This document shows, in pieces, positions 1 to 6,070 of a stretch of 6,070 nucleotides of DNA; the first letter of the stretch is position 1, and the number at the start of each line of letters is the position of its first letter. A program made the translations under genes and the position numbers. Source of the DNA: Oceanicaulis sp. (GTDB taxonomy: Bacteria; Pseudomonadota; Alphaproteobacteria; Caulobacterales; Maricaulaceae); NCBI GenBank assembly GCA_007571185.1, contig RKRX01000218.1, positions 1 to 6,070 on the forward strand, read 5' to 3'. The notes under the pieces were generated by a model, which made no database searches, was not told where the DNA came from, and was given only the letters and a program-made list of their open reading frames with translations.

Positions 1-394
1 TTTCTATACTTGGTACATAATCAAACAAAATTGCAGAAGTAATAACAAGAATAATTGATGAAATTATGATAATAATTAAGCGAACAATTATGAAGGTTGT
101 GAAAATCCAGGATCTGGGAATTGGATAATTTTTGAATTCTCGCAAAATTCCCTTCTGATGATATGATTTTATTACAGATCCCACAGCAAACAGGGCGTCG
201 CTGCTGACCATGACCCCTATCATGCCTGGTAAGAAGAAGGTCGCGTAATTCGCGTCAACGCCAAACGCGAGTCCAAAAACCACAAACAGAAAAACGGGCA
301 GGATGATGGAATAGAAATTTGAAGCAAACGAGCGCATGGAGGTCAGCGCTTGCACTTTCAAAAGGGTGATAAAAGCATTGTGGTCAGGCGCCAT
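1..394 (-). CDS. ABC-2 type transporter permease, N-terminal part (cut by window edge)
   Basis: Integral membrane subunit of an ABC exporter, paired with the ATPase just upstream in transcription. I translated 131 codons from the ATG at 394-392 down to the edge; no stop is reached, so the C-terminal part is missing. The visible protein has a short cytoplasmic lead (about 1-25), a first hydrophobic segment near 26-45, a second near 52-73, a basic loop (about 76-96, with KNYPIPRSW) and a third, very isoleucine-rich segment near 99-124. The run FFLPGMIGVMVSSDALFAVG and the loop 'KGILREFKNYPIP' are typical of ABC-2 permeases of the drug/polysaccharide-export type. The start overlaps the ATPase stop by 11 bases, so the two are probably translationally coupled. 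The last 180 bases are only about 28% GC by hand count, far below most of the window. The substrate cannot be told from the sequence. Confidence 0.85.
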   Translation of the reverse strand, partial: MAPDHNAFITLLKVQALTSMRSFASNFYSIILPVFLFVVFGLAFGVDANYATFFLPGMIGVMVSSDALFAVGSVIKSYHQKGILREFKNYPIPRSWIFTTFIIVRLIIIIISSIILVITSAILFDYVPSIE

Positions 395-1289
395 CGCGAG
401 GCTCCATCAACCAGTGATAAACATCAGCAAGATCAATCGGCAGTGTCGAATAACCGGCGCTGATTAAATCGGATTCCCGCAGCCAGGCGGTCAATTTATC
501 AAGCCCGGCGTCATCGCGATAAAATATAAAACTTGCCCCGTCTCGGTGTATGACCTGGCCGGGCGGGCATGAATTTTCCGGCAGGGAAGGGACTCTGATC
601 TTGCCGGTAAAGGGTGATACGAGCGCTTTCAATGTCTTGGCGGACGTTGGCGGATGCAGGAGCTGGCCGCGCCTTATCATCGCAATCCGGTCATGCACCG
701 CTTCAGCTTCATCCCACATGTGAGTGGTCAGCATGATCGCTCCCGAGCAGTTTTCAATGACGCGCCAGAACGCAGCACGCATCATCGGATCCATGCCGTC
801 TGTCGGTTCATCCAGGATTGCGAGAGGCGGGGAGCTGAACAGAGCGGCGTAAATGCCGACGCGTTTACGTTCGCCTTTTGACAGAATACCGGCGGGCTTA
901 TCTTCAAGTTCTCTGAGTTTCATAACCTCGTACAGACTGGGATCGGCAGGCCGTTTGTAAAACGCATGGAGTAACTCAAGCACTTCACGAACCTTCAGTC
1001 CGGGAAGAGTGGCAAAGCTGTCATAAGCGATGGTGCGACGCTCGCGTGTGATATCAGCGCGCCATTCCACTTCACCCTTGTAGTGTATGTCGTTTGCCAG
1101 AGCCTCTATCAGAAGAGATTTTCCTGACCCGTTTTCACCCAACAGAACGAAAATTTGTTGTGGCATAATCTCGAAATTGATTGAGTCAAGCAATGTAATT
1201 CCATTTGATTTATATTCAAGATTTTTAACTTGAAATATAGGGTGTATAGAGTTTGATTCTGTAAAAGAAACAGGTTCTATTTTTCTCAT
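384..1289 (-). CDS. ABC transporter ATP-binding protein (exporter ATPase)
   Basis: Cytoplasmic ATPase that powers the ABC-2 permease encoded directly after it. Numbered from the ATG at 1289 (301 residues): Walker A GENGSGKS at 51-58, signature LSKGE at 136-140, Walker B LAILDE at 156-161 followed by a GMD D-loop, switch histidine in TTH at 190, then a C-terminal extension of about 100 residues. The frame is open up to a GTG at 1331 and contains another ATG at 1307, but only the 1289 ATG has a reasonable ribosome site (AGG seven bases upstream) and it still leaves a 17-residue lead before the domain. Oddities: around residues 86-98 the region that normally carries the Q-loop glutamine reads AYDSFATLPGL with no Gln, and the signature has K and E where LSGGQ has G and Q. 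The 5' part (1141-1290) is about 28% GC, while the middle is near 58%. Family assignment is firm; the cargo is unknown. Confidence 0.93.
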   Translation of the reverse strand: MRKIEPVSFTESNSIHPIFQVKNLEYKSNGITLLDSINFEIMPQQIFVLLGENGSGKSLLIEALANDIHYKGEVEWRADITRERRTIAYDSFATLPGLKVREVLELLHAFYKRPADPSLYEVMKLRELEDKPAGILSKGERKRVGIYAALFSSPPLAILDEPTDGMDPMMRAAFWRVIENCSGAIMLTTHMWDEAEAVHDRIAMIRRGQLLHPPTSAKTLKALVSPFTGKIRVPSLPENSCPPGQVIHRDGASFIFYRDDAGLDKLTAWLRESDLISAGYSTLPIDLADVYHWLMEPRDGA

Positions 1290-1405
1290 TTCTTTACCTG
1301 CCGCCATCAATCTCTGAACATGAAAAAACACACTGTCTATACCGACAAAGGCTTACCGTACGGGTGCATGCTTGCGGATGTAATGGCGAGCGAGGGCGCT
1401 TGTTA

Positions 1406-1572: not shown

Positions 1573-2634
1573 TCAATCAATTTCCATCTCGGATCCTGAC
1601 AGGCGCCATTGTCCATCCAGCCATGCAATGATTTCCTGCGCTGCGGGGTGGTCAAACCCGGAATATGCTTCGCGCAGTGTTTCAACCCGTTCCTCTAACC
1701 GGTCGAGCCCCGTATCGTTGAGTGCGATCAGGTCGCTTGCAATTTTTTGCGCAAAAGCCTGATTGACGACACGCGAGGCCGCGTCACAGGTCGCTTCCAG
1801 ATAGGAATACGCGCCTGGGTGAGCGTAGCGGCTGGCGAGTGTGAGAGCAGGTATCAGCGACAGATGCGGCTGAAGAGCGGGGTTTATGGCATGCCGGCAA
1901 ACATGTTCGGCAATGTCGCCGGATCGGCCGCTAAATCCTCTGATGTGCAGATACTGACTCTTTACGGGGCCGTCATTGACAGGATAATTATCCCAAAGGA
2001 TCGGTTTTCTTTGTAATTTTTCTGCGATGTCTTTCAGGTGTTGAGCTGAGTATTCCCGGGAACATACTTCTTCACCTGTCCAGAAAACTTCGATATTATC
2101 ATCAAGGTTACGACCAAGCGACTCCAGATATGATGCCGGTCTTGATCCAAAAACGCGATCTAGCACTCGGTCATTGGAATAGTAGGTCGGGCAGAAAGAT
2201 AGCTGATTGACTGATGACTGGCTTGCGACAAAATCCATGATTTCAACCTGTCGCGGTGCCAGGTCCGCCATATCACCGGGCATGTCGTCGAAGAATATGG
2301 CCAGTTCGTTGATACCCGTATCTTGTAATTGCTCAATTTTCTCAACCAGAATGTTTTTTGTTGCACCGTCAAAGTTCTTGTAGAGTTTATAGGGGCTGAG
2401 CCCAATGCCAAATCTGACATGCGCATTTCTGCATGCCTCAGCAAATGTTCTCAAACGAGCAAGTTCCGGTTCAGGATACAATGTTCTCCAGTCCCGGCGA
2501 AGATACAGGTCCGCTTTTGGGGCATAGATGTAAAAATCAAACCCTTCGGGCGCGAGAAACTCCATGACATATTCGCGATCCCGCCACGACCATGCCTGCC
2601 CGAAGTAACCTTCGATAATGCCCAAGCTTTGCAT
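1573..2634 (-). CDS. GH84-family beta-N-acetylglucosaminidase (O-GlcNAcase-like), cytosolic
   Basis: Retaining glycosidase expected to release non-reducing terminal beta-linked GlcNAc by substrate-assisted catalysis. The 353-residue protein starts almost at once with the family motif IEGYFGQAWSWRDR (7-20), then YIYAPKADLYLR (35-46; Lys40 matches the substrate-contact Lys of the APK motif), the catalytic Asp pair in FFDDM (Asp116-Asp117), WTGEEVCS (185-192) and WDNYPVND (214-221), whose Asn and Asp bind the sugar in characterised members. There is no signal peptide or membrane segment, so it should act in the cytoplasm. Residues from about 250 on form a helical tail. The ATG at 2634 is preceded by a modest GGGA site. 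It follows the symporter gene by 75 bases and is the last gene of the minus-strand run. Family members are often annotated as protein O-GlcNAcase, but the neighbours (symporter, amino-sugar kinase, NamZ) point to saccharide breakdown. A hyaluronidase-type label in databases would reflect the same fold. Substrate is inferred. Confidence 0.9.
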   Translation of the reverse strand: MQSLGIIEGYFGQAWSWRDREYVMEFLAPEGFDFYIYAPKADLYLRRDWRTLYPEPELARLRTFAEACRNAHVRFGIGLSPYKLYKNFDGATKNILVEKIEQLQDTGINELAIFFDDMPGDMADLAPRQVEIMDFVASQSSVNQLSFCPTYYSNDRVLDRVFGSRPASYLESLGRNLDDNIEVFWTGEEVCSREYSAQHLKDIAEKLQRKPILWDNYPVNDGPVKSQYLHIRGFSGRSGDIAEHVCRHAINPALQPHLSLIPALTLASRYAHPGAYSYLEATCDAASRVVNQAFAQKIASDLIALNDTGLDRLEERVETLREAYSGFDHPAAQEIIAWLDGQWRLSGSEMEID

Positions 2635-2709
2635 TAGAAATCCCGCTCCCGGATTTGTGGCGGTATGGACCTCGGCTCTATTCCTTGCTCGTCTGTCGCT
2701 TCGACGCTG

Positions 2710-4236
2710 TCAGATGCTGGCAGTCGCTCTGCGATTGCCAGCGACGGCCGTGAGAAATGCGACAAACGTCGCAACGCACAGCTTCCAGGAGAAGGCAAGC
2801 GAGGTGTAGCTTTCCGGGATGCCGATCGCACCGCCAATGCTGGCTTCACCCAAGCACATCACGAGAAAGCCCACGATCAGCGAAGCAAGGACCGAATTTT
2901 TGCTTCCACGATTTGTGAACATCACCGTGGCGTACACACCGAGCAACCCCGCATAGGCGAACGTCATGACAGCCAGGGCAAATTCTAGCAGGGGCAGATC
3001 CGTCGATTGTTGCCAATAATAGCACAAACACGACATCAGGAGCAGAACAATCGCAAAGATCAGCATCGCCAACTGACCCGCAATAACATAATGACGTTCA
3101 GGTTTCCTGCTTGTCAGCGGGCGATAAAAATCGCTAACCGCCACAGCCGCCATGGAATTGAGACCTGAATTCAGCGTTGAAACGGCGGCCGCCACAACGC
3201 CTGTCACCGCCAAACCGCGAACTCCAGATGGCAATTCGCTCAGAATATATTGCACGAACACGGTCGTGCTCTCCAGATCAGGCGCGGCGACCGCTCGCCC
3301 GGTTATGTCCGGGCGCTCGTAGAAAATATGCAGCAGTTGTCCGATTGAAATGAATACAAATGTCAACGGCACTGACACCACTGCCGCCATGACGAGGGCT
3401 GTCCCTGCGCGCCTCGCATTTCCGGCGGCGAGCAATCTTTGCGTCGTATCCTGGTCCAGTCCGTAATTGCCCAACAGTAACAGCGCCACCCCTGTCATGA
3501 TGGACAACATCGTGAATGGTTTTGTCATATCCAGAGAAAAATCGAACAGAAGCAGCTTGTTTTGACCATCCGGTGCGTTTTTTGCCGCGGCCATAATGTC
3601 CGATAGAGGAAGGTTGAGGGTCTGGAAAAGGCCGATCAAAATGAAAACGGCGGTGAAAGCATATACCGCAAATTGCAAGGCATCGCTCGCTACAACCGAC
3701 CGCAGACCGCCCACCAGAGTAAAACCAAGCGCGATAAACGTGATAACCGCCGCAGCAAGAGCAACACTGGAGAAATCGGTGTTGGAGAATATGATCAGTG
3801 ACACGGCAAGCGCCGCCATAAACAGTCTGGCGCCGTTGGCGAAGACACGACCAATCAGGTACATCCCGCCGGCGGCGCGCATGGCGGTCGGTCCATAGGC
3901 TTGATCAAGCAGGTCATAGACCGTCATCACCTTTGCGGCATAAAATCTCGGCAGAAGAATAGAGGCGGCGATGATGCTGGCCAGTATGGAGCCGAGAGTG
4001 CCCGACAGATAGGTGTAATTCCCGCGAAACCCGCTATCGGGTCCGCCCAGGAATGTGGCGGCCGATTGCGTCGTCGCCAGAACGGAAAAAATAATCAGCG
4101 AAATCGGCAAAGCTCCGTTCGAAAGAAAATACTCTTTCGAGGTGGCGGCGGAACGCTGCGATAAAAACACGCCGAGCCCAGAGACGATCGCCAGATATCC
4201 TCCAAGGACCGCCCAGTCAATTAAAGAAAAAGCCAA
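2710..4236 (-). CDS. Sodium:solute symporter (SSS family), probable amino-sugar or muropeptide-sugar importer
   Basis: Inner-membrane secondary transporter of 508 residues, the usual size for the SSS/SLC5 family, with about 13 hydrophobic segments. Family marks in order: first segment at about 7-26 followed by KEYFLSNGALP (34-44), the ATTQSAATFLGGP stretch (54-66), GFTLVGGLRSVVASDALQF (171-189), GNYGLDQDTTQRLLAAGNARRA (256-277), and AAAVSTLNSGLNSMA (349-363), the segment that carries the conserved Ser/Thr of the sodium site in relatives. The start is TTG, with a strong AAGGGGAGA ribosome site upstream; no ATG is available before the first membrane segment, so the TTG is needed. It lies 70 bases after the kinase gene and 75 before the GH84 gene, in one run on the same strand. 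The substrate is not readable from the sequence; context suggests a GlcNAc- or MurNAc-containing saccharide. Confidence 0.92.
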   Translation of the reverse strand: MAFSLIDWAVLGGYLAIVSGLGVFLSQRSAATSKEYFLSNGALPISLIIFSVLATTQSAATFLGGPDSGFRGNYTYLSGTLGSILASIIAASILLPRFYAAKVMTVYDLLDQAYGPTAMRAAGGMYLIGRVFANGARLFMAALAVSLIIFSNTDFSSVALAAAVITFIALGFTLVGGLRSVVASDALQFAVYAFTAVFILIGLFQTLNLPLSDIMAAAKNAPDGQNKLLLFDFSLDMTKPFTMLSIMTGVALLLLGNYGLDQDTTQRLLAAGNARRAGTALVMAAVVSVPLTFVFISIGQLLHIFYERPDITGRAVAAPDLESTTVFVQYILSELPSGVRGLAVTGVVAAAVSTLNSGLNSMAAVAVSDFYRPLTSRKPERHYVIAGQLAMLIFAIVLLLMSCLCYYWQQSTDLPLLEFALAVMTFAYAGLLGVYATVMFTNRGSKNSVLASLIVGFLVMCLGEASIGGAIGIPESYTSLAFSWKLCVATFVAFLTAVAGNRRATASI

Positions 4237-4243
4237 CCTTGTA

Positions 4244-4252
4244 TCTCCCCTT
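4244..4252 (-). promoter_or_regulatory. Strong ribosome binding site that fixes the TTG start of the symporter
   Basis: On the minus strand this reads AAGGGGAGA, seven bases before the TTG at 4236-4234. An ATG slightly further upstream (4265-4263) meets a stop after four codons, so it cannot start the gene. The combination of a strong site and a weak start codon supports TTG initiation. Confidence 0.7.
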
Positions 4253-4306
4253 ACGGTTTTATCATGATTTAGGCGAAAGGAATCTCCGATCCGCCTTCAT
4301 GTCGAG

Positions 4307-5197
4307 TCATGCCCGCTTCTGATGTCCTGATTGTCCGGCGCCAGCGAGCATAAGGGCGCCGTCAAGTCCATCCCCCGTGGCCTTAACGAGTTTTCTGGCT
4401 GTGCGATCCCGCAACCAAGGGGTCATTCTGGACGCCACGCCGCCCACGAGTGCGCACCGCGAGGCTCCTCTTGCAAAAATCGTTTCAATGAATCGTTCAA
4501 CATGCCTGGCCGCATCCTCCACGATGGAACGGGCGATCTCGTCATTCTGTTCGGCAAAATCCAGAATCAGAGGTGCAAAGCGGCCGTAGTCGCAAGGCGT
4601 CGCACTGTCCATCCAGGCGATAGCCTGTGGGGCGTTATTGTTGAAGTGCTTCAATATGGCGGTGGTGAGTGCGGTTGCTTTTGTACGGCCATCCAGAGCT
4701 CTTAATGCGTGACGCACCCCGCTCAACCCAAGAGCCGCCCCGCTGCCTTCATCCGATATTGGAAAGCCATATCCCCCAATGGTGAAAGAGTCTGTCCCGT
4801 TGCGAATATGTGCGATACTGCCGGTTCCGAGGATGAGGATGGCGCCATCCTTGCCGCCATGGGCGCCCAGACACGCAATCGCTGCATCAGTATCCAACGC
4901 TTTGCAGGCATAGGGCAGTTCAATCGCCCTGATCGATTCCCGCATCCCTGGGCGCGTGATTCCAGCCACACCGATACCCGCGACAAGATCCGATATTTGC
5001 GATAACGAAATATTGGCGGCGACCAGCGCCCGTTCAGCGATTTGTATCCATGCCTTTTGGAGTCGCTCAACGCCGATTCTTGCGTTGGCCGGGCCTGATT
5101 CAACCTCGCTGAGTATGTGCATCCGCCCGTCGACAAGCCGTGCCTTGCACCTGCTGCCTCCTGCATCAATGCCGAGATACAAATCAGATTCCGTCAT
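4307..5197 (-). CDS. BadF/BadG/BcrA/BcrD-family sugar kinase, N-acetylglucosamine kinase-like
   Basis: ATP-dependent kinase of the ASKHA fold, expected to phosphorylate free GlcNAc (or MurNAc, as MurK of this family does) in the cytoplasm. The 296 residues show the phosphate-1 loop GIDAGGS (9-15), TDAAIA (103-108, Asp104 as candidate catalytic base), the phosphate-2 loop LILGTGS (121-127), the GGYGFPISDEGSGAALGL block (141-158) typical of NAGK-like kinases, and the adenosine motif ALVGGVASRM (249-258). The reading frame is open to a TTG at 5221, but the ATG at 5197 has an AGG seven bases upstream and begins just before the domain, so I chose it. It is the first gene of the minus-strand run kinase - symporter - GH84 and is divergent from namZ across a 225-base region. 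Which amino sugar it prefers cannot be decided here. Confidence 0.9.
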   Translation of the reverse strand: MTESDLYLGIDAGGSRCKARLVDGRMHILSEVESGPANARIGVERLQKAWIQIAERALVAANISLSQISDLVAGIGVAGITRPGMRESIRAIELPYACKALDTDAAIACLGAHGGKDGAILILGTGSIAHIRNGTDSFTIGGYGFPISDEGSGAALGLSGVRHALRALDGRTKATALTTAILKHFNNNAPQAIAWMDSATPCDYGRFAPLILDFAEQNDEIARSIVEDAARHVERFIETIFARGASRCALVGGVASRMTPWLRDRTARKLVKATGDGLDGALMLAGAGQSGHQKRA

Positions 5198-5268
5198 GTT
5201 GTGACCTGTAGGCGAAACCAATATATAACCAGTCGGGTTGAGGATCCTTAGCTAGGCCGAAAACGGGT

Positions 5269-5319
5269 CAGAGGTCAACGAACAAAACAAGGCGGGATAA
5301 AGATGGCTTGCCAGAGGTC
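5269..5319 (+). repeat. Direct repeat of CAGAGGTC (two copies)
   Basis: Identical 8-mers at 5269-5276 and 5312-5319, start to start 43 bases, close to four turns of the DNA helix. They lie in the middle of the divergent region, where a shared regulator would be expected to bind. Two 8-mers in 225 bases can also occur by chance. Confidence 0.35.
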
Positions 5320-5360
5320 TATGCGGGAGTGAAAAATTTGTATTGTATTGGTTGCGCGAT

Positions 5361-5389
5361 TTGGTCCGACACCATCCTGAATTTTATGC
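5361..5389 (+). promoter_or_regulatory. Candidate promoter for the namZ-like gene
   Basis: TTGGTC (5361-5366) and TTATGC (5384-5389) separated by 17 bases would place the transcript start about 25 bases before the ATG, just leaving room for the ribosome site. Both hexamers are imperfect. The -35 overlaps the TGGT-N5-ACCA inverted repeat, which would suit repression. Confidence 0.25.
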
Positions 5390-5422
5390 CTTGACAGGAT
5401 CACCGCTCGAAGAGGAGACCTC

Positions 5423-6070
5423 ATGATCTCGTTCGGATTGGATCGGTTTGCGGAACAGGCCGCGCTGCGCAGACCATTGCAGGGGCAAAGGGTTGCGTTG
5501 CTGGCGCATCCCGCGTCGGTCACAAGAGAACTGGACCATGCTCTGGATGTGATGGCGGAGCTGGGAGATATAAATTTGACCGCCGCTTTCGGACCTCAAC
5601 ATGGCCTGAAAGGTGACAAACAGGACAACATGGTCGAGTCCGACAATTACCAGGAGCCCGTGCATAACATTCCAGTGTTCAGCTTGTACGGTGATGTGCG
5701 GCGTCCGACCGACGAAATGATGGACACATTCGATGTGCTGCTCATCGATCTGCAGGATCTTGGTTGTCGCATATACACATTCGTGACCACACTCTTGTAT
5801 GTGCTTGAGGCTGCCGCCAAACATAAAAAGACAGTTTGGGTGCTTGATCGCCCTAATCCCGCCGGACGCCCTGTCGAAGGGTTCCGTCTTCGGCCTGGGT
5901 GGGAGAGGTTTGTCGGCGCCGGGCCGATGCCGATGCGGCATGGCATGACGCTTGGAGAAATGGGTAAATGGTTCATCCGCCATTTCAATCTCGATCTGGA
6001 CTATCAGGTCATCGAAATGTCTGGCTGGCGCCCGCATTCTGCTCCCGGTTACGGCTGGCCGATTCTGGAG
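5423..6070 (+). CDS. namZ: DUF1343 / NamZ-type exo-beta-N-acetylmuramidase (GH171), N-terminal 216 residues, cut by window edge
   Basis: Exo-glycosidase family that releases MurNAc from the non-reducing end of peptidoglycan fragments; the founding member is Bacillus subtilis NamZ (YbbC). The frame is open to the right edge, covering a little over half of a typical family member. Family blocks in order: LLAHPAS (26-32), FGPQHGLKGDKQDNMVES (56-73), LLIDLQDLGCRIYTF (106-120), VLDRPNPAGR (140-149), VEGF (151-154) and GPMPMRHGMTLGE (167-179). The ATG at 5423 has AGGAG five bases upstream; the frame is closed by a TGA at 5378 with no earlier usable start, so the protein begins directly with the domain and lacks a signal peptide. 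This predicts a cytoplasmic enzyme, unlike the secreted Bacillus protein. It is transcribed away from the kinase-symporter-GH84 run and probably heads a second operon beyond the window. Confidence 0.93.
   Translation, partial: MISFGLDRFAEQAALRRPLQGQRVALLAHPASVTRELDHALDVMAELGDINLTAAFGPQHGLKGDKQDNMVESDNYQEPVHNIPVFSLYGDVRRPTDEMMDTFDVLLIDLQDLGCRIYTFVTTLLYVLEAAAKHKKTVWVLDRPNPAGRPVEGFRLRPGWERFVGAGPMPMRHGMTLGEMGKWFIRHFNLDLDYQVIEMSGWRPHSAPGYGWPILE

What the first reader, a model, noticed from the sequence alone, without database searches (positions are those of the whole stretch)
1573..6070. Two complementary exo-glycosidases, an importer and a kinase: a candidate cytosolic GlcNAc-MurNAc dismantling pathway built on GH84 and NamZ
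Seen: a GH84 enzyme, an SSS symporter and a NAGK-like kinase in one run, divergent from a NamZ homologue, and both glycosidases without a signal peptide. Known: GH84 removes non-reducing beta-GlcNAc, NamZ removes non-reducing MurNAc, and the described Bacillus cluster pairs NamZ with the GH3 enzyme NagZ and a PTS importer. Inferred: here GH84 takes the NagZ role and a sodium symporter replaces the PTS, so an alternating chain or disaccharide could be degraded from its non-reducing end inside the cell. This combination is not one I recognise as characterised.
Basis: partly seen in the sequence, partly recalled or inferred. Interest (0 to 1): 0.75.

Follow-up and report, generated by a model that had tools for sequence, protein, structure and literature searches.

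The report
Cytosolic cell-wall sugar dismantling gene set
A bacterium in whose sequenced genome the usual cell-wall recycling enzyme NagZ was not found carries a gene set that likely imports fragments of cell-wall sugar chains and is predicted to take them apart inside the cell with two complementary trimming enzymes, one of them from a family best known for removing sugars from proteins.

Summary
The window (a whole contig, C99 of G000) encodes GH84, an SSS symporter and a BadF/NagK-type kinase in one run, divergent from the first 216 residues of a NamZ. Neither glycosidase shows a signal peptide. MurQ, NagA, the end of a NagB-II-like SIS protein, a GntR/UTRA regulator and D-lactate dehydrogenase lie on another contig of the same genome. 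In relative G054 both halves form one locus, without GH84.

GH84 beside NamZ was seen only here (0 of 80 relatives' loci; 42 with full 10-kb flanks). GH84 does recur beside MurNAc genes (MurQ, AnmK, this kinase, this symporter, D-lactate dehydrogenase), but in a minority: 4 of the 80 loci and 4 of 9 other GH84 genomes in a class sample. In G000 NagZ is missing from its conserved slot, and no AnmK was found. Three genomes of one other family have GH84 beside AnmK and no NagZ; two also have MurQ there. Many GH84 genomes keep NagZ.

The new element is GH84, probably in NagZ's place. No activity was measured.

The parts
1573..2634 (-). GH84 beta-N-acetylglucosaminidase, 353 aa, no signal peptide seen; proposed NagZ substitute
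   Evidence: PF07555 220 bits; D116-D117 invariant in 25 sequences; AlphaFold2 model pLDDT 86.5, best Foldseek matches are GH84 O-GlcNAcases
2710..4236 (-). SSS sodium:solute symporter, 508 aa; proposed importer of peptidoglycan sugars
   Evidence: PF00474 71.9 bits; 81% identical in L003, 75% in G054
4307..5221 (-). BadF/NagK-type sugar kinase (likely start near 5197); proposed MurNAc/GlcNAc 6-kinase
   Evidence: PF01869 98.5 bits, NF046058 243 bits below cut-off; relatives with solved structures include a GlcNAc kinase and a MurNAc/GlcNAc kinase
5216..5233 (+). candidate operator: two ACCAAT-like direct repeats between kinase and NamZ
   Evidence: 3 hits in 17 sequences scanned, each close upstream of the kinase gene (window, G054, L003); the pattern was chosen after seeing two of them
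5423..6070 (+). NamZ exo-beta-N-acetylmuramidase, first 216 residues, cut by the contig end, no signal peptide seen
   Evidence: PF07075 228 bits; 77% identical to the 402-aa NamZ of G054, which also has NamZ_C

Best explanation
The window holds a symporter, a sugar kinase, a GH84 glycosidase and the start of a NamZ gene that likely form the import and first cleavage steps of a cytosolic pathway that dismantles peptidoglycan sugars. Shown by sequence: the four families, their order, the lack of visible signal peptides, and MurQ, NagA, D-lactate dehydrogenase, a GntR/UTRA regulator and the end of a SIS protein on contig C49 of the same genome; also that the nagZ slot is closed and that no NagZ or AnmK was found in the held assembly. 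Inferred: the symporter brings in GlcNAc-MurNAc and/or MurNAc-GlcNAc, GH84 removes non-reducing GlcNAc in place of NagZ, NamZ removes non-reducing MurNAc, the kinase makes GlcNAc-6-P and MurNAc-6-P, MurQ splits MurNAc-6-P into GlcNAc-6-P and D-lactate, NagA and the SIS protein feed glycolysis, and Dld oxidises the D-lactate.
For: MurQ, NagA, Dld, GntR and SIS end on C49. G054 has the same genes as one locus with NamZ, kinase and symporter, and a TonB receptor beside it. NagZ absent from G000 with the slot closed; AnmK absent from G000 and present in 14 of 14 congeners. GH84 near MurQ and/or AnmK in L058, L070, L080 (4 of 80 loci have kinase and symporter, 3 of them MurQ), in G097, and in 4 of the 9 other GH84 genomes of a 362-genome class sample (G206, G309, G367, G398). 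Kinase-GH84-Dld run next to MurQ in G367. Symporter of this type near an amidase, a dipeptidase and an NlpC/P60 protein in G031.
Against: GH84 with NamZ was seen only here. 76 of 80 GH84 loci show none of the tested genes in the held flanks. 28 of 41 genomes searched keep a NagZ, among them L058, L070, L080 and G367, whose GH84 is MurNAc-linked; so do all six other GH84 relatives. G054 lacks NagZ without having GH84. The nearest SSS precedent, MurT, imports the monosaccharide MurNAc, and Tannerella takes disaccharides up by AmpG (passages), so disaccharide import by the symporter is unproven. The kinase scores best as a GlcNAc kinase. C99 and C49 are not shown to be neighbours, and NamZ is seen only in part.
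Confidence: 0.6

Rival explanations
1. GH84, symporter and kinase serve GlcNAc or chitobiose use, and the nearby NamZ belongs to a separate MurNAc pathway.
For: Kinase closest to GlcNAc kinases; known GH84 enzymes act on beta-GlcNAc; most GH84 loci lack MurNAc genes; cytosolic-type NamZ mostly stands alone in relatives.
Against: The same kinase and symporter types lie with NamZ and MurQ in G054, where GH84 is absent; GH84 itself lies with AnmK, MurQ and Dld elsewhere.
Confidence: 0.2
2. GH84 substitutes for NagZ in recycling the cell's own wall (GlcNAc-anhMurNAc) rather than in scavenging outside fragments.
For: In G206, G309 and G398 GH84 adjoins AnmK and NagZ is absent, which fits this route for them.
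Against: G000 has no AnmK, so anhMurNAc would not enter this pathway; the symporter here and the TonB receptor in G054 point to outside fragments.
Confidence: 0.1
3. GH84 is a protein O-GlcNAc hydrolase, unrelated to its neighbours.
For: Best structural matches are O-GlcNAcases, Thermobaculum first; a bacterial O-GlcNAc system is reported for Thermobaculum (PMC4683255, start of abstract in the listing).
Against: Recurrent placement beside AnmK, MurQ, kinase and Dld. An O-GlcNAc transferase was not searched for in G000.
Confidence: 0.06
4. The adjacency is accidental: the kinase-symporter-GH84 block moved in as a mobile piece and landed beside NamZ.
For: An integrase lies beside the same block in L003; congeners have no GH84 or NamZ.
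Against: Kinase, symporter and NamZ are in the same order in G054 without GH84, and the candidate operator is shared by three loci.
Confidence: 0.04

Closest known systems
Tannerella forsythia MurT-MurK-MurQ with NamZ1/NamZ2
   Same: Symporter, BadF-type MurNAc kinase and MurQ; NamZ enzymes known in that organism (passages; NamZ1/2 seen as a reference title only)
   Different: No GH84 mentioned in the passages seen; MurT imports MurNAc, disaccharides enter by AmpG. One paper calls MurT a sodium symporter in one place and a major-facilitator protein in another
Bacillus NagZ-NamZ-MurQ cluster with PTS import
   Different: GH3 NagZ and a PTS there; GH84 and a symporter here, both glycosidases without visible signal peptides
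S. aureus MurP/MupG/MurQ
   Same: Disaccharide import, cytosolic cleavage, MurQ (passages)
   Different: Phosphorylating PTS and DUF871 6-phospho-muramidase; no GH84 or NamZ in the passages
NagZ-AnmK recycling (for example Caulobacter crescentus)
   Same: Cytosolic removal of non-reducing GlcNAc from disaccharides
   Different: G000 lacks NagZ and AnmK and has MurQ; C. crescentus has NagZ and AnmK and lacks MurQ (passages)
Bacterial GH84 O-GlcNAcases (Thermobaculum, Oceanicola, C. perfringens NagJ, B. thetaiotaomicron)
   Same: GH84 sequence family and fold, adjacent Asp pair
   Different: Longer proteins; no peptidoglycan role for them was seen in the searches made

Membership tests
GH84 | Match to the NAGidase catalytic domain over its cut-off | tested here: met
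   PF07555 220 bits against 25
GH84 | Adjacent catalytic Asp pair | tested here: met
   D116-D117 invariant in 25 sequences; that this is the catalytic pair is recalled
GH84 | Beta-GlcNAc hydrolysis | not testable with these tools
   Needs an assay
NamZ (GH171) | NamZ_N domain | tested here: met
   PF07075 228 bits, profile 1-183 of 203
NamZ (GH171) | NamZ_C domain | tested here: inconclusive
   Contig ends first; present in the G054 homologue
MurT-MurK-MurQ type MurNAc catabolism | MurQ in the genome | tested here: met
   C49: NF003915 330 against 168, NF009222 275 against 255; TIGR00274 257 misses its 302
MurT-MurK-MurQ type MurNAc catabolism | SSS importer and BadF-type kinase side by side | tested here: met
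MurT-MurK-MurQ type MurNAc catabolism | Kinase acts on MurNAc, importer carries MurNAc | not testable with these tools
   Homology only
NagZ-AnmK recycling pathway | NagZ and AnmK in the genome | tested here: not met
   Neither found in the held G000 assembly, 91% complete
Recurring GH84-NamZ system | GH84 and NamZ neighbours in other genomes | tested here: not met
   0 of 80 loci, 42 with full 10-kb flanks

The most novel reading that the evidence does not exclude
GH84 enzymes have independently replaced NagZ as the cytosolic GlcNAc-removing enzyme of peptidoglycan sugar pathways in several proteobacterial lineages: beside AnmK (and MurQ) on GlcNAc-anhMurNAc in some, and with NamZ, a symporter and MurQ on GlcNAc-MurNAc in the window's organism.
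Probability: 0.5. Interest if true: 0.75.

Novelty: new variant of a known kind. Interest (0 to 1): 0.62.

Why it matters
If true, it gives a natural job to a set of small GH84 enzymes of free-living bacteria whose role is unclear, and shows that NagZ, a studied target for restoring beta-lactam sensitivity (PMC3920638, start of abstract seen in the listings), can be replaced by an unrelated enzyme family. It is directly testable with purified enzymes and in a nagZ deletion mutant of laboratory E. coli.

Tried and rejected
GH84-NamZ as a recurring pair: no second case, with the caveat that L003 ends where NamZ would be. NagZ loss as an assembly gap: rejected for G000 at the nagZ slot, where SPOR and scpA lie 58 bases apart as called (about 140 if scpA starts at its internal ATG); a NagZ elsewhere in the missing part of the assembly is not excluded. 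For G054 the question is open, since no scpA was found there. GlcNAc-anhMurNAc as the window's own substrate: judged unlikely because AnmK was not found. Signal-free NamZ as a novelty: rejected; six other relatives (L094, L095, L098, L101, L102, L103; 64-77% identical to G054's; L095 and L102 judged after trimming an upstream extension by eye, L103 partial) look the same, and in 8 NamZ loci examined no kinase, symporter or MurQ was near. My ORF picker took wrong frames for several other rows (for example L087, L090-L093) and those rows were not used; its lipobox rule also missed the motifs I read by eye for G015 and G031. A palindromic operator: not found; a direct-repeat motif is offered only as a candidate. 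Neighbours of stand-alone GH84: recurring ones were nearly all Marinobacter-only and, by eye, mostly transporters. Literature searches listed no paper giving GH84 this role; (NamZ) returned mostly unrelated papers. Subscription papers are mostly not held.
Full report
What is there. The window is a whole 6070-base contig (C99) of genome G000: 1.66 Mb, 238 contigs, 91% complete. From the left it holds part of an ABC-2 permease and an ABC ATPase, then GH84, SSS symporter and BadF/NagK-type kinase in one minus-strand run with gaps of 75 and 70 bases, and NamZ diverging 201 bases away. NamZ is only the first 216 residues because the contig ends. GH84 opens directly into its catalytic domain and NamZ opens without a hydrophobic leader. 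An AlphaFold2 model of GH84 (mean pLDDT 86.5) matches GH84 O-GlcNAcases best, Thermobaculum first.

The rest of the pathway. MurQ was found in G000 on contig C49. That contig carries, all on the minus strand, D-lactate dehydrogenase (NF008387, 772 bits against 391), a GntR/UTRA regulator, MurQ (NF003915, 330 against 168; TIGR00274, 257, misses its 302), NagA (TIGR00221, 297 against 226; NF008371, 312, misses its 483) and, at the edge, the C-terminal end of a SIS protein. In G054, of the same family, these five genes in the same order directly adjoin NamZ, kinase and symporter, which are 77, 71 and 75% identical to the window's; a TonB-dependent receptor lies beyond the SIS gene. G054 has no GH84; an MmeI-type restriction gene stands beside its symporter. 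In G015, G031 and G037, also of that family, NamZ (weak in G037) lies with MurQ, GntR and NagA, with the kinase found in two of the three, and a symporter 13-17 kb from NamZ. In G015 and G031 that NamZ looks like a lipoprotein by eye. In G031 the symporter is near an amidase with a peptidoglycan-binding domain, a membrane dipeptidase and an NlpC/P60 protein.

NagZ and AnmK. Of 99 relatives searched, 97 have a NagZ-model match at E 4.1e-57 or better; G000 is the only genome with no match, and G054 has only weak matches to long GH3 proteins. In congeners G001 and G011 nagZ lies between a SPOR gene and scpA; in G000 SPOR and scpA are 58 bases apart. AnmK was not found in G000 or G054 and is present in 14 of 14 congeners. 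So the anhydro-sugar route seems gone here, which points to reducing-end disaccharides as substrate.

Does GH84 belong to such pathways elsewhere? Of the 80 best GH84 loci kept by the scan (585 found; 42 of the 80 with full 10-kb flanks) none shows NamZ; 4 show kinase and symporter (L003, L058, L070, L080), 3 of them also MurQ; the other 76 show none of the tested genes in the held flanks. L003 keeps kinase, symporter and GH84 in order but is cut where NamZ would lie. In Sphingopyxis L058 one 11-kb stretch holds SSS, MurQ, GntR, a NagX-like gene, an FAD-linked oxidase, SIS, NagA, GH84, kinase and AnmK. In an even sample of the class, GH84 is in 10 of 362 genomes and MurQ (E 1e-40 or better) in 49; 5 have both (Fisher p 0.006; 0.02 without G000; relatedness not corrected), and in G309, G367 and G398 they are 1.4-2.2 kb apart, while in G435 they are on different contigs. 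In G367 the order is AnmK, an MFS protein, GntR, MurQ, then divergent kinase, GH84, Dld. In G309 and G398 it is MurQ, AnmK, PIG-L, GH84; in G206, AnmK and GH84. The remaining four GH84 genomes of the sample (G102, G220, G323, G418) show no such neighbours.

NagZ in GH84 genomes. I gave the NagZ search 42 chosen handles: G000, G054, the 9 other class-sample GH84 genomes and 31 of the 80 loci; 41 were searched, L003 was not held. There was no match at 1e-10 in 10: G000, G206, G309 (one contig, 100% complete), G398, two Phenylobacterium MAGs (L007, L012) and the 4 Marinobacter given, of 19 among the 80 loci. G220, G323 and G054 (which has no GH84) had only weak matches. The other 28 have NagZ, including L058, L070, L080 and G367, where GH84 is MurNAc-linked. 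All six other GH84 relatives also keep NagZ. So replacement is a reading for some lineages, not a rule, and background NagZ loss in the wider class was not measured.

Independence. On a tree of 97 GH84 proteins the 10 linked to kinase, AnmK or MurQ need 5 label changes, at least 3 forced by well-supported branches; the G206/G309/G398 enzymes are very distant from the rest, and the window pairs with L003 (100/99).

Mechanism and certainty. Shown: gene content, order, the closed nagZ slot, recurrence with AnmK and MurQ. Inferred from family functions: import, GlcNAc removal by GH84, MurNAc removal by NamZ, phosphorylation, MurQ cleavage and D-lactate oxidation. I put about 0.85 on a peptidoglycan-sugar pathway and about 0.6 on GH84 acting on GlcNAc-MurNAc in it. 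The least secure step is disaccharide import by the symporter: Tannerella MurT takes up MurNAc, and there the disaccharides enter by AmpG (passages).

Known precedents. Tannerella MurT, MurK and MurQ match the symporter-kinase-etherase part (passages; one paper places MurT in the sodium symporter superfamily in its introduction and in the major facilitator superfamily in its discussion). S. aureus MurP/MupG shows disaccharide import and cytosolic cleavage. The new part is GH84. Searches of the held library listed no paper giving GH84 this role; the Tannerella NamZ paper was not held and the Bacillus NamZ paper was not read.

Noticed in passing
window 2-1331 (-): ABC-2 type permease fragment and ABC ATPase left of GH84, 241 bases away; a transporter with no evident link to the sugar genes.
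   Followed up: no
G000 as a whole (C99, C49, C210): G000 is about half the size of its congeners (1.66 against about 3 Mb), and the three contigs read are 52-57% G+C against 65-67% in two congener stretches, as in a streamlined lineage.
   Followed up: no
L258 5187-5244 (G000 C210): Closed nagZ slot between a SPOR gene and scpA, with nagZ present there in two congeners.
   Followed up: yes
L009, L021, L027, L046: The four Marinobacter genomes tested have GH84 but no NagZ match at 1e-10; GH84 stands without peptidoglycan genes nearby.
   Followed up: partly
L248, L250 (G309, G398): A PIG-L type de-N-acetylase gene lies between AnmK and GH84.
   Followed up: no
L122 7464-10298: In G054 an MmeI-type restriction-modification gene stands beside the symporter, where the window has GH84.
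   Followed up: no
L003 4304-5467: A phage-type integrase lies beside the kinase-symporter-GH84 block, in a MAG labelled Puniceicoccaceae (Verrucomicrobiota): mobile island or mis-binned contig.
   Followed up: no
L126 1805-9804: Around the G031 symporter: amidase, M19 dipeptidase, NlpC/P60 protein, amidohydrolase and a beta-lactamase-family protein, a likely muropeptide-degrading island.
   Followed up: partly
L279-L286: NamZ of the window's type, without visible signal peptide where read, stands without kinase, symporter or MurQ in 8 of 8 loci examined.
   Followed up: partly
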